Under the pieces are notes generated by a model. That model was given only the letters and a program-made list of their open reading frames with translations. It was not told the DNA's origin and did not search any database. A DNA stretch of 64,000 nt from Saccharothrix sp. (GTDB lineage: Bacteria > Actinomycetota > Actinomycetes > Mycobacteriales > Pseudonocardiaceae): NCBI RefSeq assembly GCF_031180885.1, contig NZ_JAPSLK010000044.1, positions 1-64,000 on the forward strand, in the 5' to 3' direction. Of this stretch, positions 19,962 through 38,010 are shown in pieces. A program made the position numbers and the translations under genes. The stretch's first letter is position 1; every line of letters begins with the position of its first letter.

Positions 19962-20336
19962 TCAGCGGCCGGCCATCCGCGCGGCGAAGCCGCCGTCCCG
20001 TCGGGGGCCGTAGCGCTCGGTGTAGATCTTCTCGATCAGAGCCAGGCGCTCGGGGGTCTCGAACGGGCCGGGGTGCTCGAACAGATGCGGGTAGAGCTGG
20101 TGGGCGACGAGCCTGCGGACGTAGGAGGGAGCGACCCAGTAGCGCACGCGGGCACGCCGGGCGGGCGCGCTGTCGATGTCGGCCATGGTCAGGCTCCGGG
20201 TCTTGCGGATCTCGCCGAAAGGATCGCCGGTGAGCTGGCGGACCAGGAACGGGAACATCCGGTTCGTCATTTCTTCGAAGATCGTGGCGACGTCGACGGA
20301 CACAGTCTTCGGGGCGGGCGGCGTGATGTTGTCCAT
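19962..20336 (-). CDS. Hypothetical 124-aa protein
   Basis: ATG 20336 with GGAGAAG 5 nt upstream. The soluble product has a helical N-terminal part (VDVATIFEEMTNRMFPFLVR), a region YWVAPSYVRRLVAHQLYPHL and a C-terminal ALIEKIYTERYGPR. No known motif is seen. It is followed by a strong terminator, as are most genes of the island, but lacks the common leader element. Confidence 0.7.
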   Translation of the reverse strand: MDNITPPAPKTVSVDVATIFEEMTNRMFPFLVRQLTGDPFGEIRKTRSLTMADIDSAPARRARVRYWVAPSYVRRLVAHQLYPHLFEHPGPFETPERLALIEKIYTERYGPRRDGGFAARMAGR

Positions 20337-20375
20337 GGGCTTCTCCGCGCGGGGGTAGTTGTTGCGGTCCGACGA

Positions 20376-20405
20376 ACCGGGCCGGGGCGATGCCCTCGGC
20401 CCGGT
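20376..20405 (-). terminator. Hairpin after the nucleotidase gene
   Basis: Arms ACCGGGCCG / CGGCCCGGT (9 bp, extended by imperfect pairs) directly after the stop at 20413. Confidence 0.6.
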
Positions 20406-20412
20406 GGTCGCC

Positions 20413-21144
20413 TCACGTCTGGTCGGATTCGTTCGCCGCGCACGCGCGCACGGCGCGTGCGAAGGCGGACATGTCGTGAACCCGGCGGCGTGCGTCGTGG
20501 TGCCGGTTCCATACGGTGTCGAGCAGGTAGGCCGTGGTCCCTGCGGCCTCCAGCGCCTCGTAGTGGTCGGTGCGGTCGTCGACCATCACGTCGGTGGGGA
20601 CCACGGTCTTGTCGCGGCTGAGGGTCAGCGTGGTGAAAGGCACGGCGTGCTCGGCCAACCACTCGCGGGTTGCTTGCTCGGCTGCTCCGGGTGAACCCCA
20701 TTCGGCGCGGTCGGTGATGAGGTGCACGCGGTGTCCGTCTTCCATGAGCTGTTGGACCGCCTCTACCGAACCCGGCACGGGGGTGCCTGTGCGGAAGACG
20801 ATCCCGCTGTCCACGCCACGGTGGCAGACCGCGCTGAACTGCTCGTCGGTCAATCCCCAGTCGCGGTAGAAGTGCCAGCGCGTCGGCTCGGGCATTCGCC
20901 GCCCGGTGCCTTCGACGCCGATGAGGTACGCGCGGACCGCCGCGGGGAAGTCGTACAGCGGGCCGTCCACGTCGACGCCGACGTCGAGACGGCGCGGCGT
21001 GCGACCGTCGAACACTTCGGGCGGCAGGGTGATGGTCGTGTCGGCCCTGCGTGGGCCGACGACGTGGCGGTCCGGGATCGTCGGCGTGTGGTGTCGGTGT
21101 GCTCCGGGTGCGTTGGCGGTCCCGGCACCGGTGGTGTCGCGCAC
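20413..21144 (-). CDS. 5'(3')-deoxyribonucleotidase-like HAD phosphatase
   Basis: The 243-aa HAD-superfamily protein has motif I DVGVDVDGPLYDF (DxDG), motif II LITDRAEW, and motif III/IV DKTVV...DVMVDDR followed by HYEALEAAGTTAYLLD. That layout matches the 5'(3')-deoxyribonucleotidase (NT5C) family, which removes phosphate from nucleoside monophosphates. In phage and mobile islands such enzymes help reshape nucleotide pools. GTG 21144 was chosen for AGGAG 7 nt upstream and because the common leader element ends 21 nt before it. Confidence 0.75.
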   Translation of the reverse strand: MRDTTGAGTANAPGAHRHHTPTIPDRHVVGPRRADTTITLPPEVFDGRTPRRLDVGVDVDGPLYDFPAAVRAYLIGVEGTGRRMPEPTRWHFYRDWGLTDEQFSAVCHRGVDSGIVFRTGTPVPGSVEAVQQLMEDGHRVHLITDRAEWGSPGAAEQATREWLAEHAVPFTTLTLSRDKTVVPTDVMVDDRTDHYEALEAAGTTAYLLDTVWNRHHDARRRVHDMSAFARAVRACAANESDQT

Positions 21145-21164
21145 GGTGCTGCTCCTGCGGGTCG

Positions 21165-21223
21165 GTGACTCGGTCGTGTCCGAAGTGGGGTTGTCAGTCC
21201 GTCCGAACAAGATCAACTTTACT
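21165..21223 (-). promoter_or_regulatory. Island leader element, copy 1
   Basis: Box A (GACCGAGTCAC in mRNA sense) at 21165-21175, a diverged hairpin zone with the TGAC loop at 21187-21200, and the promoter-like box AAAGTTGATCTTGTT at 21206-21223. It precedes the nucleotidase gene. Confidence 0.75.
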
Positions 21224-21373
21224 GTTTTCGCGGCTCACCCGTGCTACGCGATGCGCGCTCTGCGGCGCGCGGAGGGCGTCGTACAGCTTGTTCCGGAGTG
21301 GCCGGTGGGCCGCTCGACTTCATCGGCGTCCGCCGTGTTCATCCGACTTGCGGACCCGGAACCCAGTGCGCCG

Positions 21374-21420
21374 GGACGCTCGGCGATATCCCGCGCGGGG
21401 CGGGAAATCGCCGAGCGTCC
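21374..21420 (-). terminator. Long hairpin after the 201-aa gene
   Basis: Perfect 14-bp arms GGACGCTCGGCGAT / ATCGCCGAGCGTCC, with further pairing inside, 25 nt after the stop at 21445. Confidence 0.75.
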
Positions 21421-21444
21421 GGCCGGATCGTGGTGACCGACCGC

Positions 21445-22050
21445 TCAGGCGTCCACCCCGTCGTCCTGGCGGTGTGCGTCGAACAGGTTGAAGACGACAT
21501 CGCCCATCGACTCGGGAATGCTGGAATCCGGAATCGCCGTGCGGAGGCGCACCACGTCGGCCACCGACAGGTGTCGACCTCCCCACCTCTGGGCCTGTTC
21601 GAGCGTGACCACCGCGATGACTCGGGCGGCCGTCTCAACCGCACGGTCCTCGCCCTCGTCGTCGTTCTCGTCGGGCAGCGGCAGCACGCAAATCGCCCGC
21701 CCGTGGTGGTTGCCCTCGTCGGGCAGAAGCCTGCGAAGCTCGGGCGGCAGGTGGTCCGGGTACTCGAACACGCGGACGAGGAGGTGCCGGACGGTCTCGT
21801 CGTCGATGTCCTGCGGGTTTCGGCGCGGGTCGAGCACCTGGTCCTCGCCTGCGAGGAAGACGCGGTCGAGCACCGGCTCGCCGCCCTTGCCGAAGTAGGC
21901 ATCGAGGTGCAGCAGCAAGGCCGACGCGGCGGGGTAGACCCTGCGCACTGCTCGGCTCAGGGCGTGCACGCAGGTGTCCACGTAGGCCGCGACGGCGTCG
22001 GCCGCCGCCTGCCCGGTCATCTCGACCGCGTCGTGGAGGTCGTCGTTCAT
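21445..22050 (-). CDS. Hypothetical 201-aa protein
   Basis: ATG 22050 with GGGAGA about 10 nt upstream and box A of the leader 24 nt before it. The protein is acidic and probably soluble. It has a helical N-terminal half (AAYVDTCVHALSRAVRRVYP, HLDAYFGKGGEPVLDRVF) and a later segment LEQAQRWGGRHLSVADVVRL. No family is recognised. Strong GC3 bias and its own leader and terminator support it as a real cassette gene. Confidence 0.75.
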   Translation of the reverse strand: MNDDLHDAVEMTGQAAADAVAAYVDTCVHALSRAVRRVYPAASALLLHLDAYFGKGGEPVLDRVFLAGEDQVLDPRRNPQDIDDETVRHLLVRVFEYPDHLPPELRRLLPDEGNHHGRAICVLPLPDENDDEGEDRAVETAARVIAVVTLEQAQRWGGRHLSVADVVRLRTAIPDSSIPESMGDVVFNLFDAHRQDDGVDA

Positions 22051-22073
22051 CGTGGAGTCGTCTCCCGGTCGGG

Positions 22074-22110
22074 GTGGTTCTGTCGGTTTCCGGGTCGGGT
22101 CGTCACTCCG
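22074..22110 (-). promoter_or_regulatory. Island leader element, copy 2 (diverged)
   Basis: Box A variant at 22074-22084 (GACAGAACCAC in mRNA sense, two differences) and hairpin box GGAGTGACGACCC at 22097-22110. No promoter-like AT box is recognisable beyond it. Confidence 0.5.
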
Positions 22111-22229
22111 CCCGGGAAGTCGGGTTCGTTGTGCGGGACAACCAGAGGGCGTCCCGATGTGGCCGGCGGGCGGCTCCCGCGACACCGGTTGGCCATGTCG
22201 CGGGGCGGCTGGGGAGCGCGGTGGACGGC

Positions 22230-23156
22230 TTAAATGGTCGGGATCGCGGGTACCGCCGACGTCACTTCGCGCACGGCTTCCGGCACGGGCTGGTCACCGA
22301 CCAGGTAGCGCGCATCGGCTTCCAACACACGCAGTGTGGCCTGCTCCGCGCTCCTGGCACGCACGACAACTTCGTGGTGCTCGTGCCGGCCGGGCAGCAG
22401 CGCCACCCGGTAGTTCGCGCCCTGGGTGTGGCGGGCCAGGTACGCGGTCATCTCCTGCAACGCCTGGACGCGGGCGGATTCCCCGCCCCTGGTGCTGTCG
22501 GCCTGGAGGTGGTTGACCACCGCGTCGAGCCGGACGACGGCACCGAGTACGGGTCCACCTGTCGTCGCCGCGTGCCGCTCGTGACTCGCCGCGTCGCACA
22601 GCAGTCGGGCCGCGTGGCGCCACGACGACGGTCGCTGCCATCCCACCGTGTCCTGCTCCGGCTCCACCTTGACGGCGATCCGCAGGAGCGCCCCGGCGGA
22701 CTGGTGGGCGTGGAGCTGGTCCGCGGCTGCGGTCCTCTCCGCGTGCTCGGCCTCGTCCTGGTCCCACTCGTAGGAATCGGCGACGTCGGTCCGGCTCCAG
22801 TTCACCAACCCGCTGTCGGACACCGGGGCGTAGCACTGCTCGCCGCGCACCAGCCACAGCACGCATTGCGCGCGGCGCAGTAGGGCCAGTGGCGTGCCGG
22901 GTTCAGGGAGGATCTCGGTCGACGCATACCAGTCGTGGCACCCCTCGCGGTGGCACGGCCCCCGGTCACGCGCCCGGCTATCGGGCGTGGAGCACTCGGC
23001 GCAGAAGGAGGTACCGGGTGTGCCGGGCTGTGCCATCGGGTAGGGAGCGACCAGCCACGTCTGTTGCCGATCGGTCAGCGGTCGTCCGACCTGGACGTGC
23101 GACTCGTCCTGCCCGGCGGGGGCGCTCGCGTCCCACCACACGACGCCGTCGGTCAT
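22230..23156 (-). CDS. Hypothetical 308-aa protein with zinc-site-like cysteines
   Basis: The ATG at 23156 overlaps the upstream stop (ATGA). Residues about 45-75 carry SFCAECSTPD and GPCHREGCHDW, a likely zinc site. A segment VLWLVRGEQCYAPVSDSGLV ending in NWSRT closely resembles two segments of the protein at 28923-29999, pointing to a shared module. The C-terminal half is helical (LDAVVNHLQADSTRGGESAR; VVVRARSAEQATLRVLEADA). Function unknown. It is the second gene of a two-gene unit with 23153-23449. Confidence 0.75.
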   Translation of the reverse strand: MTDGVVWWDASAPAGQDESHVQVGRPLTDRQQTWLVAPYPMAQPGTPGTSFCAECSTPDSRARDRGPCHREGCHDWYASTEILPEPGTPLALLRRAQCVLWLVRGEQCYAPVSDSGLVNWSRTDVADSYEWDQDEAEHAERTAAADQLHAHQSAGALLRIAVKVEPEQDTVGWQRPSSWRHAARLLCDAASHERHAATTGGPVLGAVVRLDAVVNHLQADSTRGGESARVQALQEMTAYLARHTQGANYRVALLPGRHEHHEVVVRARSAEQATLRVLEADARYLVGDQPVPEAVREVTSAVPAIPTI

Positions 23157-23449
23157 GGCGCGCCGGTGCGGGGCAGGATGACGGACACCGGGGCGGTCGG
23201 GGAGGGCAGCTTGTCCTCGGCGCACAGGGTGTCCACCAGCGCACGGATCTGGTTTTCGTCGGGGTACTCGTCGAACGACCCGTCCTCGGTGAGCAGGCGG
23301 CCGTCGGCGACGCGCACGACTTCGTAGGACCTGCCGTCGATGCCGTTCCACCGCAGTTCGGTCACGCGGTACTGCTCGCCGTCCACGGTCACGGTGGCCA
23401 GGTCGCGTTCGCCGGTGACCACGCTGCCGGGTCTGGTGCTGTTGCCCAT
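23153..23449 (-). CDS. Hypothetical 98-aa protein
   Basis: ATG 23449 with AAAGG 6 nt upstream. The small beta-rich protein (VTVDGEQYRVTELRWNGIDG, YEVVRVADGRLLTEDGS) ends in a proline-rich tail that overlaps the next gene's start. It has a DUF-like look but I do not recognise it. Just upstream lies an exceptionally strong hairpin (23471-23516), so transcription of this pair may be attenuated or start within the 70-nt gap. Confidence 0.7.
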   Translation of the reverse strand: MGNSTRPGSVVTGERDLATVTVDGEQYRVTELRWNGIDGRSYEVVRVADGRLLTEDGSFDEYPDENQIRALVDTLCAEDKLPSPTAPVSVILPRTGAP

Positions 23450-23622: not shown

Positions 23623-23662
23623 CCGTGCGGCTGGCCTCGTTCTCGATGCGCCGGCCGCACGG
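23623..23662 (-). terminator. Hairpin after the 399-aa gene
   Basis: 13-bp arms CCGTGCGGCTGGC / GCCGGCCGCACGG with one G-T pair, starting 9 nt after the stop at 23671. Confidence 0.7.
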
Positions 23663-23670: not shown

Positions 23671-24870
23671 TCAGTGGTTGGCAAGCGGAGTGGTGTCGGC
23701 GTCCTCGGAGGCGTCGGACCGGCACGCGACCTCGCCGTCCGAGAGGGGCACCTCGTCGTCGATCAGCACGTGTAGGCCGGGGTCTTCGGGCATCGGGACG
23801 TCCGCCCACGGGTCGTCCACCCACGGCTCGGCGACCACCTCGTCCGGTTTGTTCGCGTGCCGGTACCTCGCCTGCGCGGTGAGCAGGCCGATGGTGACGA
23901 CGTGCCGTCCGGCGTTGCGAAAGTCCAGACACCAAGCCAGATCGACGGGGCGATAGGTCAGCGCGTCGGTCAGCCACCGCACGACGTCCGCCGCCACCCT
24001 GGGCCAACGGGGGTCGACGCTGAACGGAACGGTGTCGGTGGCCCCGTCCAACCCGACCAGTTCGACCGGCTTCTCGTCGTCCTCCTTGCGGTCGCTGAGG
24101 TCCACGCGAACCGCCCAGGCGTCGGGGTGGAAACGCAGGATCGCGCGCGCGGCGGCTCCAATGCAGGCGCGCACGTGCTCGGTGACGGCGTGGTCGGCGC
24201 GAGCACGGGCGGCGGTGATCCGCTCATACTCCGGTCCGCGATCGGTGCCGTCGTCGAACGCTTCGATCACGCCGACCAATGCCGCCCTGAGGTCATCCCG
24301 GTTGACGGCGACCTGCGTCGGCGAGGTGAGGTAGTCCAGCATTGCGGCAGCGGCACTGGGCCGCTCGCCGCCTGCGAGGATCGCCAACGCGTCCGCGTAG
24401 TGCAGGCGCAACTGTCCGGCTTGCTCGTCGGAGAGCTGCATCCAGTGCAGGTCAAGGGGGTAGTAGCCGTCTGCGTCCGGTCCGATGAGCTGAGGGTAGG
24501 GGTAGTCGCTGTAGGGGTGGTCGTCCCACACCTCCAGCACGTCCCCACGCCACTCGAAGTGGTGGCAGCCCAGTTCCGCCGCTTCGAGGAGCACCCCGAT
24601 CCATGCGACGACCGATCGACGGAATCGCGCGGAGTTGGTGTCGTCGAGTGGGTGACTGTCGGCGGAGTGGCGGGGGATGCCGGGGAATGCCGCGTTGCTT
24701 CCGGGGAGGGTCATCAAGACCTCACCCGACGGGAACGGCGTCGCCTGTTCGGACAGGCGCAGCGTGACGCGGCGGGCGTCGGCCTGCCCGGTCCCCAACC
24801 GGGTCACCGGGTCGGATTGTGGGCGCGCACCGGGGTTGTTCGTTTCCCCGACGCTCATGTCATGGCGCAC
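23671..24870 (-). CDS. Hypothetical 399-aa protein
   Basis: GTG 24870 (VRHDMSVGETNN) has AGGAG 7 nt upstream and box A of the leader 19 nt before it. The protein is acidic and soluble with an aromatic-rich central part (GCHHFEWRGDVLEVWDDHPY then PLDLHWMQLSDEQAGQLRLH). A helical region with many acidic residues and a Trp/Asp-rich tail (EPWVDDPWADVPMPEDPG) follow. No enzyme motif or membrane segment is recognised. Own leader and terminator. Confidence 0.8.
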   Translation of the reverse strand: MRHDMSVGETNNPGARPQSDPVTRLGTGQADARRVTLRLSEQATPFPSGEVLMTLPGSNAAFPGIPRHSADSHPLDDTNSARFRRSVVAWIGVLLEAAELGCHHFEWRGDVLEVWDDHPYSDYPYPQLIGPDADGYYPLDLHWMQLSDEQAGQLRLHYADALAILAGGERPSAAAAMLDYLTSPTQVAVNRDDLRAALVGVIEAFDDGTDRGPEYERITAARARADHAVTEHVRACIGAAARAILRFHPDAWAVRVDLSDRKEDDEKPVELVGLDGATDTVPFSVDPRWPRVAADVVRWLTDALTYRPVDLAWCLDFRNAGRHVVTIGLLTAQARYRHANKPDEVVAEPWVDDPWADVPMPEDPGLHVLIDDEVPLSDGEVACRSDASEDADTTPLANH

Positions 24871-24888
24871 GGTTTTCGCTCCTGGATA

Positions 24889-24950
24889 GTGATTCGGTCG
24901 TCGTCGGAATCTGGGCGTCACCCCTGAACCGACAAGATCAACTATATCGT
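24889..24950 (-). promoter_or_regulatory. Island leader element, copy 3 (near-consensus)
   Basis: Box A 24889-24899 (GACCGAATCAC), hairpin box GGGGTGACGCCC at 24913-24924, promoter-like box ATATAGTTGATCTTGTC at 24931-24950, all in mRNA sense. Confidence 0.85.
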
Positions 24951-25132: not shown

Positions 25133-25192
25133 CGGAGTGCCCCGGAAGGCGACGGCCACGGCGTGGTTGGCATCGCCTCCCTGGGCACTCCG
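25133..25192 (-). terminator. Long hairpin after the 559-aa gene
   Basis: Outer arms CGGAGTGCCC / GGGCACTCCG (10 bp) with inner imperfect pairing (GGCGAC with GCATCGCC), ending 4 nt from the stop codon. Confidence 0.65.
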
Positions 25193-25196
25193 GAGT

Positions 25197-26876
25197 TCAC
25201 TCGTGCGCGCCACCCGGCGGGCGTTCGGCGGCGTCCGACGGTGTGACCTCGGCCTTGTCCGGGGTCGTGGAAGCCGCCTGGACGACGCGGCCGACGATAG
25301 TGAAGACGCCGTGTCGCGGGTCGTAACTGTCGTTGTCGTAGACCAGCCCGCACTTGGCGCACCGCATGAGGTTGCTGGTCCAGTCCTGCGGGGTTGGCTC
25401 GACTGGTTCGCCGTTGTCGTCGACCGGGTAGAACCCGTCGCTACAGGGGTTGTTGCCGCAGTGGCATTCGGGCCAGTTGCGCGGATCGGCGGGGATGGTC
25501 GGCGCCACCGCGGTGACCTGGGCGCTGTAGGCGGGCAGGTGAGGGCCGGAGGTGTCGGTCCACGACCAGCCCGGCCCCACGCGGGCGGCGTCGACGCTCA
25601 CCCGACCCGGTGACCACGGCGTGGTGATCCGTTCGATGCTCGCCTCGTGCCCGGAGCCGTTGAAGTGGTCGAGCACCAGCAGGTGCGCGTTCGTGAACTC
25701 GACGGCGACCGGGGGCGCGGGCACGATGGCGTGTGACCGGCGCGCGGGCGGGTGTGCGAGCTGGTAGCCGTCGTAGGGTTCGCCGTACCAGATCATGTAG
25801 AGCCTGCCGCCGTTGTAGGCGTGTGCGAGCAACTCGTCTAGGGCTTCGGAGACCGCTGGCACTGCGGTGTCCAGTCCGGCTGCCTCGGCGATCTCCGCGA
25901 GGGTCGAGAGGTACTGCTCGGCGTCCGATGTCGGTGCGGGTGGCACCGCGACGTTCAGGTCGTAGCGCAGCAGCATGGAGGGGCTGTTGCGCAGCAGGCT
26001 GAGTTCCGGGTGGGAGGTGTCGCGCTCCACGATCTCCTCGCGTAGCGCGTCCAGCAGGTTGTGGTGTTCCAACTCGTCGCGTTCGTCGTCGTCGAGCAAG
26101 TCGTTCAGGATGGCCTCGATCGCGTGCCACCGGTGATCGCCCACCCACTCATGGCCGTAGTGGTCGAACACCTCGTCGTCGGTGTCGGACGAGGAGAGCA
26201 TCAACTGGATCTGTCGGGGTTCGAGGCGGTCGCGGTAGTGGGGGGTGAACAGTTCGTAGGCCGGTTTGAGACCTTCGACGGTGCGTTCGTAGAGTCGGTC
26301 GGCGTCGGTCGAGCGCTTGGCGGCGGCACGCGCCGCGCGGGTCATGAGCATGACGTCGCCGGTGTCGGCGACGGAGATCTCCATGACGGTGCCGCCGGCG
26401 ATCGCCGCGTCTCGCGCGGCGTGGTCGGCCGCCCGCGCGCACGGCGGTCCCAGGGGCAACCCCCGCGTGTTGGCGGCGTGTTCGGTGTGCGGCGCGGGCT
26501 CGGGGCGGCACTCGGCGCAGGGAGCGCCGGCGAGGTAGACGGCCAGTTGGACACCGCGCTCGTTGTGCACCACGTGGGCTGCGCGGTCGCCGGGGCCGTG
26601 CTCGGCGATCCAGGTGGTGGAGTAGTCGGCTGCGGGGAGGTCCGTCTCGATGCGGTATCGGCCGGTTTCGGAGGCGGAGAGGTCGAGCCAGCGCAGCACG
26701 AGCGGCTCCAGGTGCGTGCTGCGCCATTCGGTCGGGTCGACAGTGCCGCCTCTCGGCACGCGGATCATCGAAGGGCGGTCGTCGGGTCCGTCGAGTGCAG
26801 TGATGGTGACGCCGACGTAGCCGTCGGCGGCTGCCGTGGCGTTCGCCACTGAGTTGTCGGTGGGGTCGGAACCCAT
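25197..26876 (-). CDS. Hypothetical 559-aa protein with two zinc-ribbon-like sites
   Basis: ATG 26876 with GGGAG 8 nt upstream and box A of the leader 23 nt before it. Cysteine sites: GAPCAECRPEPAPHTEHA near 120-140, and a C-terminal cluster ECHCGNNPCSDG plus MRCAKCGLVYDNDS that looks like a zinc ribbon. The middle is helical and acidic (LNDLLDDDERDELEHHNLLD) and contains YNGGRLYMIWYGEPYDGYQL. I do not recognise the family. Its size and multiple metal sites suggest a nucleic-acid-associated or scaffolding role, which is inference only. Confidence 0.8.
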   Translation of the reverse strand: MGSDPTDNSVANATAAADGYVGVTITALDGPDDRPSMIRVPRGGTVDPTEWRSTHLEPLVLRWLDLSASETGRYRIETDLPAADYSTTWIAEHGPGDRAAHVVHNERGVQLAVYLAGAPCAECRPEPAPHTEHAANTRGLPLGPPCARAADHAARDAAIAGGTVMEISVADTGDVMLMTRAARAAAKRSTDADRLYERTVEGLKPAYELFTPHYRDRLEPRQIQLMLSSSDTDDEVFDHYGHEWVGDHRWHAIEAILNDLLDDDERDELEHHNLLDALREEIVERDTSHPELSLLRNSPSMLLRYDLNVAVPPAPTSDAEQYLSTLAEIAEAAGLDTAVPAVSEALDELLAHAYNGGRLYMIWYGEPYDGYQLAHPPARRSHAIVPAPPVAVEFTNAHLLVLDHFNGSGHEASIERITTPWSPGRVSVDAARVGPGWSWTDTSGPHLPAYSAQVTAVAPTIPADPRNWPECHCGNNPCSDGFYPVDDNGEPVEPTPQDWTSNLMRCAKCGLVYDNDSYDPRHGVFTIVGRVVQAASTTPDKAEVTPSDAAERPPGGAHE

Positions 26877-26898
26877 GCGGGTGCTCCCGGTCTGGAGG

Positions 26899-26962
26899 GT
26901 GATTCGGTCTTTGCGGGCCGGGGGCGTCACCCCCGGACCCACCACTAGCTTAGCAATGCTAA
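26899..26962 (-). promoter_or_regulatory. Island leader element, copy 4
   Basis: Box A 26899-26909, perfect 5-bp hairpin GGGGG-TGACG-CCCCC at 26920-26934. The distal AT box is replaced by the palindrome TTAGCAATGCTAA (26950-26962), also found in similar form at 34800-34812. Confidence 0.8.
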
Positions 26963-27012: not shown

Positions 27013-27048
27013 GGAAGGCCCTTCGCGCGGTGGCGCGAAGGGCCTTCC
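27013..27048 (-). terminator. Perfect 16-bp hairpin
   Basis: Arms GGAAGGCCCTTCGCGC / GCGCGAAGGGCCTTCC with a 4-nt loop, 23 nt after the stop at 27071. Confidence 0.85.
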
Positions 27049-27483: not shown

Positions 27484-27516
27484 CGGCCCGCCGCCGTGCG
27501 GCACGGCGGCGGGCCG
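27484..27516 (-). terminator. Perfect 15-bp hairpin
   Basis: Arms CGGCCCGCCGCCGTG / CACGGCGGCGGGCCG with a 3-nt loop, 6 nt after the stop at 27523. Confidence 0.85.
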
Positions 27517-28711: not shown

Positions 28712-28737
28712 GGTGTGCTCCCTGGTTCGGTGGTGAA

Positions 28738-29999: not shown

Positions 30000-30020
30000 G
30001 CTGGTGCTCCTCGGATTCGA

Positions 30021-30054: not shown

Positions 30055-30314
30055 GGTGGCGGTGCGGGTCCGTCCCGCCGGCGCGAGAACGGGCCGGCGT
30101 TGCGATGGACCCGCGTCGCGGTCGTTCACGGTCGGCTGCGAGATCGGCCGGCGGCGGGCTTTCCCCACAAGAGGGGCTTTGCCGCGACTCGTCGGATACC
30201 TCGCGAAACAGGCTCTTTCCGACTAAAAAATACTATCGCATTTCCGGAATGACGTCGGAGTGCGGCGGACGCCATTCCGCCCGAGGTGCGTGGCGCACGT
30301 CGGACGGGTACGCC

Positions 30315-31124: not shown

Positions 31125-31143
31125 CGGAAATTCCTCGAAAGAA

Positions 31144-31208
31144 GTGATTCGGCCCTGGCGGCACTCGGGGCGTCACTCCGGTGTCCGGCCAACACGACAA
31201 TTCTATCG
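31144..31208 (-). promoter_or_regulatory. Island leader element, copy 8 (before the DpdA-like gene)
   Basis: Box A 31144-31154 (GGCCGAATCAC), hairpin GGAGTGACGCCCC at 31167-31179, distal box AGAATTGTCGTGTTGG at about 31187-31204. Confidence 0.8.
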
Positions 31209-31298
31209 AGAATTCACGGAGAACAGTTTGCGTAAATTACGTGCGGATTCGGGTGGCCCGGCGGTGGGATTGGGTCACGACGAACCCGGGGTTCGGAC

Positions 31299-31343
31299 GC
31301 GAGTGACCGCCGGCCCGGTCCGCCGGGTCCGGCTGTCACTCGC
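31299..31343 (-). terminator. Long hairpin after the 361-aa gene
   Basis: Outer arms GCGAGTGAC / GTCACTCGC with further GCCGG / CCGGC pairing inside; 36 nt after the stop at 31379. Confidence 0.7.
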
Positions 31344-31378
31344 GGGAAGGTGGCGCTCGGCTGCAACGGCGCAGCCGG

Positions 31379-32464
31379 TCAGCTCTGCCCAGTGCCAGCG
31401 GGGTGCGTCCCCGACTGGCGGGCAGCCAGGTCGTCCGCCTCGGCGTGGCGCAGCGCCTCGGCCGCCCACGGCCAGGATCCGAGGTAGGTCAGCGGTCCGT
31501 CGCCGGTGTCGTCCCGCCACACGCGCTGCGTGAAGACACCGATCTCGACCAAATAGGTCACCGCGCGGCCGCCCCGGACGGACGCCGCGCGCCAGCGCTG
31601 CGGGGGGCTGGCCTCCAGCCGTTGCCAGCACAGGTGGCCGTCGTCGCGGTGGTCCTCCGCGGGCTTCGCGTGCGCCAACCTCTCCAGGTGGGCGGCGCGG
31701 AGCTGGTCGAACGCCGGGCCGGCGGAGATAACCGCGCCGGTCTCGTAGTGGTAGAGCATGTAGGTGGCAGCACATGGGCGACGGCGGTCGGAGTCGTAGC
31801 GGGCCGCGCACCACGGCCTGTCCTCGTCTTCAGCAGGGGCGGGGTACAGCATGCCCGGCTGCTCACCGGGGACGTAAAGCGCTCGGCCGCAGTGGCGGCA
31901 GCGGGGGTACCAGTCCTCCTCCGCGGTCAGCACGGCCGGGCGGCGGTCCTCGTCGAGTTCGGGCTCGAAGAGCGCGACGCGGCCAGCCGGAACGATGATC
32001 AGCGCCGTCTGCCGGTACATGATGGCGGCGACGACCACCCACTCCGCGGGGTCGCGCTGCTCGACGTCGGCGGGCGCACGGACGTAACACCCGAGATCGA
32101 GATCGGGGATGTCCACGACCGCCAGCGGGTCCTCGCGGAAGGTGGGTGAGCGGCGCGGCTGGTCGGGAACGAGCTCCCATCCTGCCGGATCGGGGACCAG
32201 GATGTGGTGCGGACCGCACCGCTCCCAGTCGGCGATGTCGGCGGGCACCGCGTGTCCGGTGCGGGCTGCGCGGTCGGCCACCACCTCGTGGAGCACCTCG
32301 GGGCGGAACGCCGGGCGCATCACGAGGCTGTCCCGATCGGTGCCAGCCTTTTCGCTGCCGTAGTGCAGCAACGCGGGGAAGGTCCGCGTGGTGCCCGGCA
32401 GCGAACGGTCGAAGACCAGGACTTCGCCGAAGGTGATCGGTGAGTGGTTGACGTCTCGGGTCAC
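31379..32464 (-). CDS. Hypothetical 361-aa protein with a zinc-ribbon-like site
   Basis: I prefer GTG 32464 (VTRDVNHSPITF), with AGAGGA 7 nt upstream. A GTG at 32524 would add 20 residues and sit nearer to the leader. Central CRHCGRALYVPGEQ and RRPCAATYM may bind zinc. The N-terminal half contains VMRPAFRPEVLHEVVADRAA and ADWERCGPHHILVPDPAGWE. The C-terminus holds TYLVEIGVFTQRVWRDDTGD and PWAAEALRHAEADDLAARQ. No family is recognised. It lies directly upstream of the DpdA-like gene but has its own leader and terminator. Confidence 0.75.
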   Translation of the reverse strand: MTRDVNHSPITFGEVLVFDRSLPGTTRTFPALLHYGSEKAGTDRDSLVMRPAFRPEVLHEVVADRAARTGHAVPADIADWERCGPHHILVPDPAGWELVPDQPRRSPTFREDPLAVVDIPDLDLGCYVRAPADVEQRDPAEWVVVAAIMYRQTALIIVPAGRVALFEPELDEDRRPAVLTAEEDWYPRCRHCGRALYVPGEQPGMLYPAPAEDEDRPWCAARYDSDRRRPCAATYMLYHYETGAVISAGPAFDQLRAAHLERLAHAKPAEDHRDDGHLCWQRLEASPPQRWRAASVRGGRAVTYLVEIGVFTQRVWRDDTGDGPLTYLGSWPWAAEALRHAEADDLAARQSGTHPAGTGQS

Positions 32465-32562
32465 GTGCGCGTCCTCTCGGTGCACCTGCGGACACGCTGA
32501 GCAGCGGCGGAATCCGTACGGCACGCGGCAGGGGGAACCGTCGGAACGGTTCTCGGTGAATA

Positions 32563-32616
32563 GTGATTCGGTCAGTCGGTTCGGGCGTCACCCCTGTCCG
32601 ACAATATGATCCTAGC
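32563..32616 (-). promoter_or_regulatory. Island leader element, copy 9
   Basis: Box A 32563-32573, hairpin GGGGTGACGCCC at 32583-32594, distal box GATCATATTGTCGG to about 32612. It is 99 nt from the preferred start, or 39 nt from the alternative GTG 32524. Confidence 0.75.
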
Positions 32617-33716: not shown

Positions 33717-33753
33717 GCGCCGACCCCGGCGCGACGTTGACCGGGGTCGGCGC
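33717..33753 (-). terminator. Perfect 13-bp hairpin
   Basis: Arms GCGCCGACCCCGG / CCGGGGTCGGCGC with an 11-nt loop, 6 nt after the stop at 33760. Confidence 0.8.
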
Positions 33754-33759: not shown

Positions 33760-34722
33760 TCAGGAAACCTTGAGGTAACCGGCCCTGACGGCGTCGATGG
33801 TGGCGCGGACGGCGTGGTCGAGCGCGGTGTAGGCGTCCGGCTCGTCGGCGGGGTACGGGAACGCCCCCCAGACGAGGATGTCGCCGTTGGGGCGCCGCGT
33901 CCCCGGCGACCGTTGCCACACCTTCGCGGCCCGCCACATGTGCCCCTTCGGACCAGGGCAGCCCTCGCTCGCCGCGAACTCGTACCCCTCGTCGCGGCAG
34001 TGGGGGCACGGTTCGTCTGCGGGCGTGGGTTCGAACAGGTCGAGCCGGTAGGCCATGCCGGGCAGCGGGTTGCGCTCGGCGATCGCCACCACGTGGACGA
34101 GCGCGGTTCCGGAACACGCCAGTTCGGGCAGCGTGCGCTCCAGGAGGTCGACGGCCCCGTGCAGGCCGTCGAACCCGGACCGGACTGCGTAAATGGTGCC
34201 GTCCGGCCGGCGCGCCGAGAGCCAACCCGGCTCGGTGCGCCGCGTGCGCAGCCGGACCGGACCATGCTCGGTGGAGATTTCGAGCGAACCGGGCAACCCG
34301 TGGTTGTCGGTGACCAGCACGGGCCGGTAGTCGTGGGTCTCCATGGCGTCGAGCAGGATGGCGGTGTCGCAGTAGGCGGTGGTGGCGGCCAAGCGGTTCG
34401 CCTCCTCCTGGGCCTCGCGGGCGCGCTCGTGCAGGTCGTCGCCCAGCAGCGCGAGGGCGTCGGCGCGGTCTAGCAGGCAGGCGCAGGGCTCGCTGTCGGC
34501 GATGCCCACGCCCTGACAACTCGGGCAGTCGGCCACTGCCCAGTCCTCCGGGCCCACCCTGCGCAGCAGGGCGTGATTGGGGAAGGCGGTGAGGCAGTCG
34601 GCCGAGCACGGCAGTGTCGGCTCGGCACCGCACTGTTCGCACGCATCGGTGCGGAGATCGTGACCTTCCGGCGTGTCACCGACCATGCGGCCGGTGTCGG
34701 GCGCGGTTTCGGACGTGGACAT
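33760..34722 (-). CDS. Hypothetical 320-aa cysteine-rich protein
   Basis: ATG 34722 with GGAG 6 nt upstream and box A 26 nt before it. The N-terminus carries ACEQCGAEPTLPCSADC, then DCPSCQGVGIADSEPCACLL (a DnaJ-like or zinc-ribbon pattern). A third site EPCPHCRDEGYEFAASEGCP lies near 220. The rest is beta-rich (RLRTRRTEPGWLSARRPDGT). Three zinc knuckles suggest nucleic-acid or protein binding. No enzyme motif is recognised. Confidence 0.75.
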   Translation of the reverse strand: MSTSETAPDTGRMVGDTPEGHDLRTDACEQCGAEPTLPCSADCLTAFPNHALLRRVGPEDWAVADCPSCQGVGIADSEPCACLLDRADALALLGDDLHERAREAQEEANRLAATTAYCDTAILLDAMETHDYRPVLVTDNHGLPGSLEISTEHGPVRLRTRRTEPGWLSARRPDGTIYAVRSGFDGLHGAVDLLERTLPELACSGTALVHVVAIAERNPLPGMAYRLDLFEPTPADEPCPHCRDEGYEFAASEGCPGPKGHMWRAAKVWQRSPGTRRPNGDILVWGAFPYPADEPDAYTALDHAVRATIDAVRAGYLKVS

Positions 34723-34747
34723 GAACGCTCCAGTGGTGGTTGCGGAA

Positions 34748-34812
34748 TTGATTCGGTCTGTGTCGTCCGGGGCGTCACTCCCGAGCCAACAAATAAAACT
34801 TAGCACAGCTAA
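34748..34812 (-). promoter_or_regulatory. Island leader element, copy 10
   Basis: Box A 34748-34758, hairpin GGGAGTGACGCCCC at 34769-34782, distal AT-rich box 34785-34799, then the palindrome TTAGCACAGCTAA at 34800-34812 (compare 26950-26962). The rest of 34813-35103 has no supported gene. Confidence 0.8.
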
Positions 34813-35103: not shown

Positions 35104-35147
35104 GGCCCCGGCGGCAGGCGTAGGTTCCTGTGCCTGCCGCCGGGGCC
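35104..35147 (-). terminator. Perfect 16-bp hairpin
   Basis: Arms GGCCCCGGCGGCAGGC / GCCTGCCGCCGGGGCC with a 12-nt loop, 19 nt after the stop at 35166. Confidence 0.85.
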
Positions 35148-35165: not shown

Positions 35166-36494
35166 TCAGAAGAGAGTCAGCGCGTGGAACTCGTTCCAAC
35201 GCCTGGCAAAGCTGCTGCGCTCCTTATCGTCCACGCCCGTGGGAACCAGCACGTGCAGGTGTTCGGCGGCCGGGTAGACGACCGACTTGCCCTTGGGCGC
35301 GCGACGACGGGTCCAGGCCCGGATGATGCCGTACCGGTGATCGACCTCCAGTTCGGCCACGAGGTTGGCGCGCATCCAGTCCAACAGGTCGCGCCGGGTC
35401 CCGGTCCGGATGGCCCGGACGCTGCGGAACGGGCTGCCCTTCTTGCTCGGATCGTCGTCCTTGGCGGTGAAAAGGCGCCGGATCTCCAGCACGTCCCAGC
35501 TCTCATGGGCCTCGATGCGGGCCAAGGCGATGTCCACGACGTGGTCCAGCCCTTCCTCCAGGGCGACGTCGAAAGCGGTCCTTCCGGTGCCGAACAAGCC
35601 GATGTTCTCGTTGAGTGCCAGGGCGGTGTACTCCAGTTCAAGGCCGAACGCGGCGACCTCGGGCTGCGCCCGCCAACGCGCCACGAGCTCGGCGCGACTT
35701 CCCGCGATCCCGCTGAACGGGCACCAGGTACAGCATGACCTGGGCCACTCCTCGCCCTCGGCGAGCTTGAAGACCTGCTTCAGATATTTGGACGCGTCGG
35801 AGCGGTTCATGCCCCAGTCCATGAGGGGGTACCAGGCCAGGCAGGGGACTGTCTTGCCCTCGCCCTCCTTCTCCAGGCGGGCCTCGGCGTCGCGGGCGGC
35901 ACGCCTGCCTTCCTCGGCCGCGTACCCCGTCACGTGGATGTAGCCCGGCTGCATGTTGTCCCGGACCCACCAGTCGATGGGGTCACCCTTGGCCCGGTCG
36001 GAGCACCACCGCCGCCCTTTCCGCACGCTGGGGAGGGTGCCGCCGGCCTTCATCTCGTAGGACAGCCGCCAAGGGCCGATCATGTGCATCCGGTCCGGCC
36101 TGCGGGTGTCGGAGAGCACCACGTAGCCGTGCTTGCGCTTCTGCCCGGCCCGGCAGATCTGCACGTAACGGATGCGATGCTTGCGCATCAACGGCAGCAG
36201 GTACCGCTCCATGTACTCGCGGGTCCGGTCGTGTTCCTCGCCCGTCATCGCCGTAACGACGGTCAGGGCCGAAAGCGGAAAACCACGCAAGGTGGCGTTG
36301 AGGATCCAGCGCACCAACAGTGCGACCGAGTCCACGCCCATGCCCAGCGAGAGGACAACCTGCCGCTCGCGGTACCGCGGGTCCAGGGCGTCGGCGACGA
36401 TCCGGTTGTCCTCGGCCGCGACGTTCGTCAAGACGGCTTGCGGAGCGGTGACGGCACGGAGTACAGCGCGGGAAGATGACTTGACAGACTTCAT
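35166..36494 (-). CDS. PP-loop ATPase, PAPS-reductase/DndC-like (442 aa)
   Basis: The N-terminal adenylating PP-loop is VVLSLGMGVDSVALL at 46-60, a variant of SGGxDS. Other family-like segments are TAMTGEEHDRTREYMERYLL and RRWCSDRAKGDPIDWW. A cysteine cluster RSCCTWCPFSG (C254, C255, C258) probably binds zinc or an iron-sulfur cluster. PP-loop enzymes of this type activate a substrate with ATP for sulfur or amide transfer; relatives act in DNA phosphorothioation (DndC) and 7-deazaguanine synthesis (QueC). The exact reaction cannot be assigned. ATG 36494 with GGGGA 5 nt upstream; leader box A is 20 nt before it. Confidence 0.75.
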   Translation of the reverse strand: MKSVKSSSRAVLRAVTAPQAVLTNVAAEDNRIVADALDPRYRERQVVLSLGMGVDSVALLVRWILNATLRGFPLSALTVVTAMTGEEHDRTREYMERYLLPLMRKHRIRYVQICRAGQKRKHGYVVLSDTRRPDRMHMIGPWRLSYEMKAGGTLPSVRKGRRWCSDRAKGDPIDWWVRDNMQPGYIHVTGYAAEEGRRAARDAEARLEKEGEGKTVPCLAWYPLMDWGMNRSDASKYLKQVFKLAEGEEWPRSCCTWCPFSGIAGSRAELVARWRAQPEVAAFGLELEYTALALNENIGLFGTGRTAFDVALEEGLDHVVDIALARIEAHESWDVLEIRRLFTAKDDDPSKKGSPFRSVRAIRTGTRRDLLDWMRANLVAELEVDHRYGIIRAWTRRRAPKGKSVVYPAAEHLHVLVPTGVDDKERSSFARRWNEFHALTLF

Positions 36495-36513
36495 GAAGTC
36501 CCCGGTAACGGAA

Positions 36514-36577
36514 GTGATTCGGTCCGCGTCATCAAAGGGGTGTCACCCCCTTTTTCGACACAGGATAAACAATATCC
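36514..36577 (-). promoter_or_regulatory. Island leader element, copy 11 (longest hairpin)
   Basis: Box A 36514-36524. The hairpin has extended arms AAAGGGG / CCCCTTT at 36534-36553 around a TGACA loop. Distal box ATATTGTTTATCCTGTGTCG at about 36556-36575. The longer stem here, with the loop kept, supports an RNA hairpin. Confidence 0.8.
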
Positions 36578-36966
36578 GATTCGGCTTTCGCTCGACGGCA
36601 AGCCACTTTCGCTTCCAATGCGAAATCCTTCCAGTGCGATATTTGTGCTGGCCGGTAAAGGCGTTTGGTTATATCTCTCGAAGGCGGGTAGAGCAGACTT
36701 CAGCGACAGCCTTTCCGGCTCGCCGCTGTTGGTTTCCGAGTGTGACTTGCACAGCTAGCATGGGCGTCGCGTCGACGCGTCTAGTACGGCAGCCTGTGGA
36801 CCTGCCGCGCGGGTTGCTGCCGCCCCGCCCCGTGCCAGATCGCTGACCTCGTGCGGCAGGACACGGCTGCGGCGCGCCGTACGGCGACCGGACACCGCCT
36901 GGAAAGTTCCGTCCATCGGGCCTGGGCGACACGGCCGTCCATTTCGCGGCCGTGTGGACGTGGTGC
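36578..36966. other. 390-bp region without a supported gene
   Basis: It holds AT-richer sequence next to leader copy 11, then a short inverted repeat (CACGGCCG / CGGCCGTG at about 36931-36955). No ORF has a ribosome site and sensible codon use. Confidence 0.5.
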
Positions 36967-37012
36967 GCGCCCTCGCCGGGCGCCTGGAGGCGCACGCACC
37001 CGGCGAGGGCGC
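36967..37012 (-). terminator. Perfect 14-bp hairpin
   Basis: Arms GCGCCCTCGCCGGG / CCCGGCGAGGGCGC with an 18-nt loop, 5 nt after the stop at 37018. Confidence 0.8.
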
Positions 37013-37017
37013 GGGGT

Positions 37018-37830
37018 TCAGGAGTTCGGACTGGCGTGCTGCTGCGCCCGGCGTCCGGCGACGCGCAACGGCCGGTGTCTGCGGCGCGCGGCGCGGCGGC
37101 GGTTGTATGCCACCTGGATCTCACTGAAGCGCCTGCCTGCGATGAACTTTTTGGCCTTGGGCAGGTTGTTGACCGACATGCCGACAGGGGCGGGGCCGGT
37201 GACGGCCAGGCGGTCGTCGGCGGTCTGCGGGTGCCAGCCCGCGCGGATGATCGACTCCTCGTCGGGGAACACGTCGGCGACGCGGTCCACCGACGGGTCG
37301 AGCAGGTGGTCCTCCCGCCCACCCAGGGAGTAGACCCAGAAGAAATTCTCGGGCGGGTCGGGCTCGACCAAACGCTTGAAGCGCTCGACTTCCTTGGTGT
37401 AGCTGTAGATCCTGACCGCCGGGCACACGCGTGCCACCCGAAGCCATTCGAGCAGGTAGTCGTCGCTGAAGTAGTCGCCGGCGTCGTGCACCCTGACCCA
37501 CAGGGTCTGCTTGCTGCGCTGATTGCGCCGGGTCAACTCTGCGATCATCGCTTCGCCCCAGCCGCGAAGGTCGTCGAGCACGAACAGTAGGTTCGCCTGG
37601 TGCCGGCGTTTGACGCTGGGCCACAAATAGGCGCCCTGTCGTGCGTAGCAGGGAAGGGCGCAGATCCCCGCGGCCGGGCAGGTGCTGACGGTCCTGCCGT
37701 CGGGCAGGCGGGTCGCCAATGCCGGGATGCTCCAGTTGACGATCTTCAGTTTCGCGAGTCGGCTGTTCTGCGTGAGCAGCGTCTTGGGACGGGGGAGTGC
37801 GGTCACGGTCTCGGTGTGGTGTTCCGGCAC
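37018..37830 (-). CDS. Gp88-like protein with radical-enzyme-like cysteine cluster
   Basis: The 270-aa product from GTG 37830 (VPEHHTETVTALPRPKTL; GAGGG about 10 nt upstream) contains STCPAAGICALPCYARQGAY, with C51, C57 and C61. This is the hallmark of the actinophage gene-product-88 family, whose spaced cysteines recall an iron-sulfur site. Conserved-looking segments follow: LWVRVHDAGDYFSDDYLLEW, IYSYTKEVERFKRL and VYSLGGREDHLLD. The biochemical role of Gp88 proteins is not established to my knowledge. A basic Arg-rich tail (RRRAARRRHRPLRVAGRR) could bind nucleic acid. Own leader and terminator. Confidence 0.7.
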   Translation of the reverse strand: MPEHHTETVTALPRPKTLLTQNSRLAKLKIVNWSIPALATRLPDGRTVSTCPAAGICALPCYARQGAYLWPSVKRRHQANLLFVLDDLRGWGEAMIAELTRRNQRSKQTLWVRVHDAGDYFSDDYLLEWLRVARVCPAVRIYSYTKEVERFKRLVEPDPPENFFWVYSLGGREDHLLDPSVDRVADVFPDEESIIRAGWHPQTADDRLAVTGPAPVGMSVNNLPKAKKFIAGRRFSEIQVAYNRRRAARRRHRPLRVAGRRAQQHASPNS

Positions 37831-37893
37831 GGGTGATCTGCCCTCTCGGAGGACACGACATTCCCAGAAAGAAGGGCGGGGTGTCGCGGATTG

Positions 37894-37931
37894 GTGATTC
37901 GGCCTGCGTCGTCCACGGTGTGTCAATTCCG
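37894..37931 (-). promoter_or_regulatory. Island leader element, copy 12 (diverged hairpin)
   Basis: Box A 37894-37904 (GGCCGAATCAC). Hairpin zone CGGAATTGACACACCG at 37916-37931 keeps the TGACA loop. A promoter-like GAATTTCGGTGTCGTCGG lies beyond it. Confidence 0.7.
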
Positions 37932-38010
37932 TGTCCGACGACACCGAAATTCTACCGGTTTCCGAATTCCCGTGTGGCGCATGAACGTGCGACGAAAGAC
38001 ACCGGAATCC

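What the first reader, a model, noticed from the sequence alone, without database searches (positions are those of the whole stretch)
19962..37953. One-gene cassettes: leader, gene, long perfect hairpin
Nearly every gene in this stretch ends in a 9-18 bp inverted repeat within 3-40 nt of its stop (for example 27013-27048, 27484-27516, 28306-28354, 33717-33753, 35104-35147). Most begin with the same leader. Although all point the same way, they are insulated units, unlike a normal operon. This resembles a collection of accessory genes added one by one under a shared control signal (inference).
Basis: partly seen in the sequence, partly recalled or inferred. Interest (0 to 1): 0.65.

Follow-up and report, generated by a model that had tools for sequence, protein, structure and literature searches.

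The report
Plasmid-specific hairpin leaders before each gene
A block of genes near a plasmid's mobilization genes carries the same hairpin-forming leader before most genes and another hairpin after them, and related plasmids use the same fold with a different short signature, which looks like a private switch for genes needed on entering a new cell.

Summary
Of 21 block genes that I listed, 12 carry the leader; 11 of these 12 end in a 3' hairpin above my cut-off, the twelfth just below (15 of all 21, against 17 of 300 random stretches). "Nearly every gene" and "one gene" are somewhat overstated: g7-g5-g4 is a conserved three-gene block and 9 of 21 genes lack the leader.

The leader is a structured, RNA-like element: a covarying hairpin with a conserved GUGAC loop, then an 11-14 nt tag about 30 nt before the start codon. 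Relatives in genome G019, the Amycolatopsis sp. AA4 plasmid, G264, G318 and G340 keep hairpin and loop, but the tag is near-uniform within a plasmid and differs between plasmids (5 tag types on 6 plasmids). Homologous genes carried the resident tag in 12 cases; one did not. In all six the array lies upstream of mobC/relaxase on the same strand, ending 1-11 kb before mobC, which suggests a leading (establishment) region. Leader genes include DpdA, Mom and a cytosine methylase.

Best reading: a plasmid-specific leader regulon of establishment genes, probably read as RNA by an unidentified plasmid factor. No Rfam family matched; our paper searches listed no description. Expression, factor and transfer polarity are untested.

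The parts
21160..21216 (-). leader of NT5C-like gene (divergent copy)
   Evidence: R1 46.2 bits (in the training set)
22069..22125 (-). leader of g3, degenerate tag
   Evidence: R1 38.6 bits (in the training set)
24884..24940 (-). leader of g7 (first gene of g7-g5-g4)
26894..26949 (-). leader of g8
28733..28787 (-). leader of g11
30016..30070 (-). leader of g12
31139..31195 (-). leader of dpdA
   Evidence: best window match of R2
32558..32610 (-). leader of g14
34743..34797 (-). leader of g16
36509..36565 (-). leader of paps
37889..37945 (-). leader of gp88
44613..44670 (-). leader (weak) of the split PAPS-reductase-like gene pap2
   Evidence: 26 bits; not in the training set
46170..46181 (-). 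tag-only copy GACCGAATCACT, no clear hairpin
   Evidence: R1 18.1 bits
20413..21144 (-). NT5C-family 5'-nucleotidase-like gene
   Evidence: PF06941 2.9e-15
21445..22050 (-). g3, unknown; homologue with window-type tag in G019
22230..23156 (-). g4, unknown, no own leader found
23153..23449 (-). g5, unknown, overlaps g4
23671..24867 (-). g7, unknown
25197..26876 (-). g8, unknown
28358..28711 (-). g11, unknown
28923..29999 (-). g12, unknown; homologues in G019 and G264 with their own tags
30315..31124 (-). DpdA family (DNA transglycosylase)
   Evidence: PF23859 1e-69; matches in 399 phage records by tblastn
31379..32461 (-). g14, unknown
33760..34722 (-). g16, unknown; in 4 related plasmids, each with its own tag
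35166..36494 (-). PAPS-reductase-like gene (paps)
   Evidence: phrog_424 5e-21; matches in 113 plasmid records
37018..37830 (-). GP88 family; tag-bearing in 4 related plasmids
   Evidence: PF17338 2e-48
38071..44594 (-). pap2, PAPS-reductase-like by eye, split by a recombinase-bearing insert (about 38.8-44.1 kb)
   Evidence: homologous halves in AA4 and G264; recombinases
20376..20405 (-). 3' hairpin of NT5C-like gene
   Evidence: score 28
21374..21420 (-). 3' hairpin of g3
23623..23662 (-). 3' hairpin of g7
25133..25192 (-). 3' hairpin of g8
27013..27048 (-). 3' hairpin of g9
27484..27516 (-). 3' hairpin of g10
28306..28354 (-). 3' hairpin of g11
28853..28885 (-). 3' hairpin of g12
30277..30307 (-). 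3' hairpin of dpdA
31298..31344 (-). 3' hairpin of g14
33717..33753 (-). 3' hairpin of g16
35104..35147 (-). 3' hairpin of paps
36966..37013 (-). 3' hairpin of gp88
38005..38056 (-). 3' hairpin of pap2
17361..19349 (-). relaxase; the block points at it
   Evidence: PF03432 5e-14; homologues in 5 related plasmids
19031..19387 (-). mobC-like stretch upstream of and overlapping the relaxase start
   Evidence: tblastn 47% over 121 aa to AA4 mobC

Best explanation
The block (about 20-47 kb) is the leading, or establishment, region of a mobilizable or conjugative actinobacterial plasmid. Most of its genes are separate transcription units. Each such mRNA would start with the same element: a 5'-terminal hairpin (stem free to change, loop GUGAC kept), then a plasmid-specific tag just upstream of the ribosome-binding site; a second hairpin closes the unit. 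Shown here: the anatomy, stem covariation, loop and tag conservation, plasmid-specificity of the tag, position and orientation relative to mobC/relaxase in 6 of 6 plasmids, and the 3' hairpins. Inferred: the promoter and transcript start; that it acts as RNA; that a factor encoded by each plasmid reads the tag and loop and sets translation or stability of all genes together; that the genes are needed on entry and then shut down; that the 3' hairpins stop transcription.
For: Covariation: 29 leaders of G019:C57, 14 pairs, 12 with both-side changes, 82.2% of cells paired versus at most 49.3% when slid, 0 of 500 shuffles on all five measures; 49 leaders of three plasmids: 12 of 13 pairs, 78.0% versus at most 48.6%, 0 to 3 of 500 shuffles. 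Conservation in C57: loop 0.98 and tag 0.98, stems 0.73 and 0.79. Tag cores by plasmid: window GACCGAATCACT, G019 CGAACCCGACAACC, AA4 and G318 ACAGATTGAAC, G264 ATCGAAAACCAA, G340 GATCGAACGAA, with a few deviating copies in each. Homologous genes carry the resident tag in 12 cases: gp88 in 4 plasmids, g16 in 4, g12 in 2, paps in 1, g7 in 1. In 6 of 6 plasmids the array lies upstream of mobC+relaxase on their strand; nearest copy 1.0-1.8 kb from mobC in window, G019 and G264, 4.5 in AA4, 9.9 in G318, 10.8 in G340; transfer-gene homologues lie on the relaxase side in AA4, G019 and G340. Leader genes include DpdA, Mom (G264) and a C5 methylase (AA4). 3' hairpins also mark the AA4 block, 16 of 30 genes versus 5 of 48 elsewhere on that plasmid, and C57, 17 of 23 leader ORFs versus 15 of 300 random stretches. 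Tag-to-start medians 27.5-39 nt in plasmids with 9 or more measured.
Against: No expression data. In the window's own 11 leaders the covariation is modest (71.2% paired, score reached by 4 of 500 shuffles, both-side pairs by 117 of 500) and RNAalifold keeps only 2 pairs. GU versus AC counts do not favour RNA over DNA (45 GU, 39 AC). No trans-acting factor found: of window ORFs only mobC and relaxase have homologues in all five other plasmids, and AA4 and G318 were only partly held. Nine of 21 block genes have no leader. No resident tag was found before paps in AA4, G264 and G340, NT5C in G019, or the partial g8 and g14 homologues. The g3 homologue in G019 carries the window-type tag, read here as an imported fragment. 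oriT and the transferred strand are inferred from position only. Most leader genes have no known family.
Confidence: 0.6

Rival explanations
1. DNA operators: a plasmid-encoded repressor binds the tag, and perhaps the inverted repeat, in double-stranded DNA downstream of each promoter, comparable to Reg of plasmid p576 and its establishment promoters.
For: A repressor-controlled establishment regulon exists (PMC8708921, first part of the Discussion); the tag is sequence-conserved and plasmid-specific; the GU/AC count does not separate RNA from DNA.
Against: Tag and loop lie at a varying distance (20-25 nt in the leaders kept), the stem covaries while its sequence is free, and the tag stays close to the start codon; these fit RNA better.
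Confidence: 0.2
2. A constitutive expression module: 5'-terminal hairpin for mRNA stability plus a spacer before the ribosome-binding site, copied with each gene, without a trans-factor.
For: 5'-terminal hairpins can stabilise messages (own knowledge); tag just upstream of the start; no trans-factor and no supported anti-tag sRNA found.
Against: Does not explain a conserved loop, or a tag near-uniform within and different between plasmids, even for homologous genes and within one genus (window and G019).
Confidence: 0.15
3. Single-strand promoters (Frpo/ssi type) active on the incoming strand.
For: Position and orientation relative to mobC/relaxase; leading-region genes and Frpo promoters as described in passages of PMC11541004.
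Against: The -10-like box lies outside the hairpin (by eye); stretches upstream of 9 of the 12 window leaders, folded as the complementary single DNA strand, give z -1.9 to +0.9 (best: 9 of 200 shuffles as stable).
Confidence: 0.05
4. Recombination cassettes: the 3' hairpins are insertion sites, as in integrons.
For: Gene content varies between sister plasmids; a hairpin after most genes.
Against: No common motif among the 3' hairpins by eye; the one transfer trace begins inside a gene; the recombinases found in the block lie in the pap2 insert and score far below the integron-integrase cut-off. Integrases elsewhere were not searched for.
Confidence: 0.04

Closest known systems
Establishment gene regulatory sequences (EGeRS1/EGeRS2) of the pLS20 family of Bacillus plasmids (PMC8708921; outline with abstract, passages and first part of the Discussion read)
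   Same: Repeated upstream sequences reveal a plasmid regulon of variable establishment genes clustered in one region, each followed by an operon; EGeRS1 contains many inverted repeats.
   Different: EGeRS1 is 400-750 bp; EGeRS2 is a promoter with Reg operators; here a leader of about 55 nt with conserved loop and plasmid-specific tag, in Actinobacteria. In pLS20 the transferred strand is the non-template strand; the geometry here suggests (inference) the template strand.
Start-associated sequences (SAS/ESAS) of cluster K mycobacteriophages (PMC3203893, PMC12699233; passages read)
   Same: Short sequences repeated just upstream of many start codons outside the structural genes, about half with upstream inverted repeats whose consensus differs between subclusters; function unknown.
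   Different: SAS is one 13-bp sequence, GGGATAGGAGCCC; the ESAS inverted repeats have a consensus sequence and a variable spacer, the opposite of the free stem and conserved loop here; phage, not plasmid.
Leading-region anti-defence islands with Frpo promoters (PMC11541004; passages read)
   Same: Genes near oriT in one orientation, including anti-restriction genes and methylases.
   Different: No Frpo-like promoter fold was found here; the shared element is a leader before single genes.
Com-mom translational control of phage Mu (PMC6483171; start of abstract in a search listing only)
   Same: An RNA-binding protein activates translation of a DNA-modification gene; a Mom homologue is among the leader genes (G264).
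   Different: One gene; no Com homologue was looked for here.

Membership tests
Known RNA family (Rfam 15) | Match to a curated covariance model | tested here: not met
   0 families at gathering score in the window; in L044+L045 at E up to 1 one mir-8515 hit, E 0.91. AA4, G264, G318, G340 not scanned
Structured RNA element | Compensatory changes in the stem beyond shuffles and slid controls | tested here: met
   12 of 14 pairs, 29 leaders of C57; 12 of 13 pairs, 49 leaders (rows had passed a mild pairing filter); modest for the window's 11 alone
Structured RNA element | Present in a transcript | not testable with these tools
   No RNA-seq at hand
Leading/establishment region | Beside oriT, on the side away from the transfer genes, genes pointing to oriT | tested here: inconclusive
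   Array upstream of mobC+relaxase on their strand in 6 of 6, 1.0-10.8 kb away; oriT not mapped
Leading/establishment region | Anti-restriction / DNA modification genes | tested here: met
   DpdA, Mom and C5 methylase; but only 9 Pfam families over the 46 leader genes scanned
Leading/establishment region | Early transient expression in the recipient | not testable with these tools
   -
EGeRS regulon | Homologous 400-750 bp upstream sequences | tested here: not met
   Aligned leaders span 53-62 nt; sequence not compared with EGeRS
SAS/ESAS | GGGATAGGAGCCC within 2 mismatches before start codons | not tested
   Tags compared by eye only; none resembles it
Integron-type cassette | Shared attC-like hairpin and integron integrase | tested here: not met
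   3' hairpins differ in sequence (by eye); recombinases of the pap2 insert score 23-29 bits against a cut-off of 265
Intrinsic terminator | Hairpin followed by a T run | tested here: not met
   0-3 T in the next 8 nt, never a run
ssDNA promoter (Frpo) | Promoter boxes inside a stable single-strand fold | tested here: not met
   9 of the 12 window leaders tested, z -1.9 to +0.9

The most novel reading that the evidence does not exclude
Each plasmid of this group carries its own RNA signature that marks its establishment genes, read by a plasmid-encoded RNA-binding factor; absence of that factor in a naive recipient switches on all tagged genes at once, and genes brought in from another plasmid with a foreign tag stay outside the regulon until retagged. 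The same design (conserved hairpin loop plus tag) has arisen or diverged in other actinobacterial plasmids, for example a Streptomyces plasmid with a recurrent CGGCAA loop.
Probability: 0.33. Interest if true: 0.88.

Novelty: new variant of a known kind. Interest (0 to 1): 0.7.

Why it matters
In the passages we searched, leading regions of actinobacterial plasmids were not treated. A leader that marks the genes of a regulon gives a direct way to list them; most have unknown function and some are probably directed against host restriction. If the tag is read by a plasmid factor, it would be an RNA-level establishment control unlike those in the papers we read, and the tag differences give ready-made swap experiments.

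Tried and rejected
Loop-tag pseudoknot: GUGA can pair with UCAC in the window tag, but the tags of the other plasmids cannot pair so with the same loop, and two window leaders break it (by eye); rejected.

Antisense sRNA against the tag: no complementary 10-mer in the window contig (68 kb), the G264 contig (116 kb) or 125 of 306 kb of the AA4 plasmid; 6 in G019:C57 (3 same-strand copies outside the block) and 2 in G340 (7 same-strand outside my block limits); not supported, not excluded.

Copying of whole leaders as the cause of uniform tags: stems differ freely while loop and tag stay conserved, so selection is the better reading.

RNA versus DNA by wobble pairs: inconclusive. Accessibility by folding: tag 0.56-0.75 unpaired, ribosome-binding site 0.29-0.52, no control run; not decisive.

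Common regulator: of window ORFs only mobC and relaxase have homologues in all five other plasmids; a regulator encoded off the 68-kb contig would be missed.

Exact window pattern in 99 relatives: 29 match, the window's genome included; the other 28 have 1-3 scattered matches each. The reversed-pattern control found one match in all, so these are not shown to be chance, but none is a cluster. R1 in 297 and R2 in 390 family genomes: 146 and 68 have any match (E 0.1 and 0.01). Three or more same-strand matches close together: G000, G019, G264, G275 (contig of the AA4 plasmid's length, taken as the same) and G318; pairs in G340 (followed) and G120 (not followed). G000, G019 and AA4 match by construction; G264, G318 and G340 were independent finds, G318 close to AA4. 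In 394 class-level genomes 69 have a match, none a cluster.

Streptomyces-type pattern over 394 class-level genomes: 222 match, reversed controls at similar rates, listing capped; uninformative.

Selection of rows: A2 came from a tag search plus two loop-based copies. A4 rows had to show TGAC before the tag and 3 of 5 inner pairs; one search dropped 12 of 56 hits as off-pattern, overlapping, tag-only or wrong strand, leaving 44; 5 missed by the pattern were added by hand. Window leaders g3 and pap2 are not in A4. TGAC in A4 is thus by construction; a tag-only search finds it upstream in 31 of 35 tag hits of the C57 block and 11 of 11 in AA4. A6 (Streptomyces) rows were chosen by the GGCAA loop and 4 of 6 inner pairs, 11 of 18 L051 rows kept by eye, so its loop and inner pairs are by construction. 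An earlier C57 count (18 of 26) held a duplicate and two non-leaders; 17 of 23 replaces it. AA4 gene ends were typed from the tables, ends of overlapping genes left out.


Full report
CHECK OF THE OBSERVATION. The five hairpins quoted are at exactly the stated coordinates. With one scoring (stem score >=30 within 85 nt of the stop), 15 of the 21 block genes that I listed have such a hairpin, against 17 of 300 random stretches inside and 16 of 300 outside the block (Fisher p 1e-12). Of leader genes 11 of 12 pass and the twelfth scores 28; of genes without leader 4 of 9 pass. The eight bases after the stems hold 0-3 T and no run, so these are not U-tract terminators; whether they stop transcription is untested. 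The shared leader is beyond chance: its exact core occurs 8 times in the window, never in 100 shuffles, and nowhere else in the 9.46-Mb genome. A covariance model built on 11 copies finds these and a weak twelfth at 44613. The picture of single-gene units needs corrections: g7-g5-g4 (24867-22230) is a block with overlapping g5/g4 and a leader found only before g7, kept in a sister plasmid; and pap2 (44594-38071) is split by a recombinase-bearing insert.

WHAT THE LEADER IS. On the minus strand the leaders read: a -10-like box in many (TATAGT, TAAGTT and similar; by eye, no -35 seen, not tested), often TTGTYGG, a hairpin with loop GTGAC(G/A), a tag, a ribosome-binding site and the start codon. 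In the sister genome G019 (same genus) the model finds a second array on contig C57. On 29 leaders of C57 the stem covaries strongly: 12 of 14 pairs have changes on both sides, 82.2% of cells pair versus 49.3% at most when the partner is slid, and 0 of 500 shuffles reach any of the five measures. Over 49 leaders of three plasmids, chosen with a mild pairing filter, the result is alike: 12 of 13 pairs, 78.0% against 48.6%, 0 to 3 of 500 shuffles. For the window's 11 leaders alone it is modest: 71.2% paired, covariation score reached by 4 of 500 shuffles, both-side pairs by 117 of 500, and RNAalifold keeps only 2 pairs. In C57 loop and tag columns are 0.98 conserved, the stems 0.73 and 0.79: kept loop, kept tag, free but complementary stem. 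Wobble counts do not settle RNA against DNA; the place before the start codon (medians 27.5-39 nt where nine or more were measured) favours RNA.

THE TAG BELONGS TO THE PLASMID. Amycolatopsis sp. AA4 plasmid unnamed1 (NZ_CP024895), reached through a homologue of paps, has the same hairpin and loop but the tag ACAGATTGAAC. A hairpin-only model then found clusters in G264 and G318 and a pair in G340, with tags ATCGAAAACCAA, ACAGATTGAAC and GATCGAACGAA. So six plasmids show five tags, each near-uniform within its plasmid; tag searches count 9 to 38 copies of the core per plasmid, the C57 count with some outside the block. Homologous genes carry the resident tag in 12 cases: gp88 in C57, AA4, G264 and G318; g16 in C57, G264, AA4 and G340; g12 in C57 and G264; paps and g7 in C57. 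A G264 tag copy also lies about 80 nt before the aligned start of its pap2. Against this: no resident tag before paps in AA4, G264 and G340, NT5C in C57, and the partial g8 and g14 homologues; genes without leader in the window (g4, g5, g10, g15, g22, g23) mostly lack one there too. One gene breaks the rule: the g3 homologue of C57 has the window-type tag. It lies behind a remnant of g4, as g3 does behind g4 in the window, so a piece of a window-like plasmid, starting inside g4, seems to have been imported; its loop has a change and g3 matches over only 132 of 201 residues.

SURROUNDINGS. In all six plasmids the array lies upstream of mobC and the relaxase on their strand. The nearest copy is 1.0-1.8 kb from mobC in window, G019 and G264, 4.5 kb in AA4, 9.9 kb in G318 and 10.8 kb in G340. 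In AA4, G019 and G340 transfer-gene homologues lie on the relaxase side. The block thus points at the likely oriT from the side away from the transfer genes, the layout of a leading region as described in passages of PMC11541004; here it is an inference, oriT not being mapped. Leader genes with telling families are DpdA in the window, Mom in G264 and a C5 methylase in AA4: three kinds of DNA modification; Mom protects phage Mu DNA from restriction (abstract of PMC6483171 in a listing). Over 46 leader genes of the other plasmids, those for which my script called a reading frame, only nine Pfam families match. The AA4 block is also enriched in 3' hairpins, 16 of 30 gene ends against 5 of 48 elsewhere on that plasmid, and C57 has 17 of 23.

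HOW IT PROBABLY WORKS. I commit to an establishment regulon: transcription units tied together by a leader that a plasmid-specific factor recognises at tag and loop, most likely in the RNA, giving joint expression on entry and shut-off later. The shared structured leader with a plasmid-specific tag is well supported; the leading-region reading rests on position and a few gene families; the factor, the direction of its effect and the timing are inferred. The closest precedent is the pLS20 family, where repeated upstream sequences revealed establishment regulons and, on p576, a repressor that is not transferred gives transient expression (PMC8708921, first part of the Discussion). Among window ORFs only mobC and relaxase have homologues in all five other plasmids; an antisense RNA found no support; single-strand promoters found none.

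WIDER VIEW. A Streptomyces plasmid (NBC_01186, L051) shows what may be an independent version. CGGCAA is the commonest hexaloop of the hairpins on its coding strand (9; next 5). I aligned 11 of 18 loop-selected places: 81.8% of cells pair and all 9 pairs have both-side changes, but the rows were chosen by loop and inner pairing, so only the three outer pairs (6, 8 and 7 of 11 paired) are free of that choice; several are followed by CCCAACCC-like tags before the start (by eye). An M. gordonae and an M. vanbaalenii plasmid also hold repeated upstream motifs, not analysed further. In 394 class-level genomes the GUGAC-loop model finds no cluster, so that version seems limited to the window's family in what was searched.

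NOVELTY. No Rfam family matches in the window or in L044+L045. Paper searches on start-associated sequences, leading regions, actinobacterial plasmid leaders, establishment genes and related words listed no description of it; most subscription papers are not held. I rate it a new variant of a known kind: repeated upstream control sequences of mobile-element regulons, with a new design.

Noticed in passing
window 38.8-44.1 kb: The insert that splits pap2 carries two tyrosine-recombinase genes, one reading in frame with the pap2 N-terminus, and a gene with a Pycsar effector (PycTM) domain at 39074-39583. G340 has related recombinases (37-39%) next to its own pap2, so pap2 may be a repeated target.
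   Followed up: partly
L051 419-14854: Streptomyces sp. NBC_01186 plasmid: hairpins with recurrent CGGCAA loop upstream of genes, possibly an independent leader family.
   Followed up: partly
L047, L052: M. gordonae plasmid p1 repeats hairpin loop CGACCG plus AGAACGGAGA before starts; M. vanbaalenii plasmid repeats GTGACCTTTT and AACCCTGCT in longer repeats.
   Followed up: no
window 27071-27463: g9: no start codon in frame was listed where the gene should begin; possible frameshift or assembly error.
   Followed up: no
window 23465-23661: Two 48-nt hairpin sequences 79% alike flank a possible 22-aa reading frame between g7 and g5.
   Followed up: no
window, location not checked: TCCGGGTCCTGGGACC-like 10-mers recur 8-11 times on one strand of the window, probably a repeat array unrelated to the leader.
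   Followed up: no
G019:C57:243881-244536: gp88 homologue matches in two overlapping pieces, suggesting a frameshift.
   Followed up: no
G120 contig C1:5366300-5368371: Two equal R2 matches (26.4 bits) on one strand, 2 kb apart, in a same-family genome.
   Followed up: no
window 889-4329: DNA polymerase III alpha-type gene in the left part of the contig, which shares little with the sister plasmids; whether this part is plasmid or chromosome is open.
   Followed up: no
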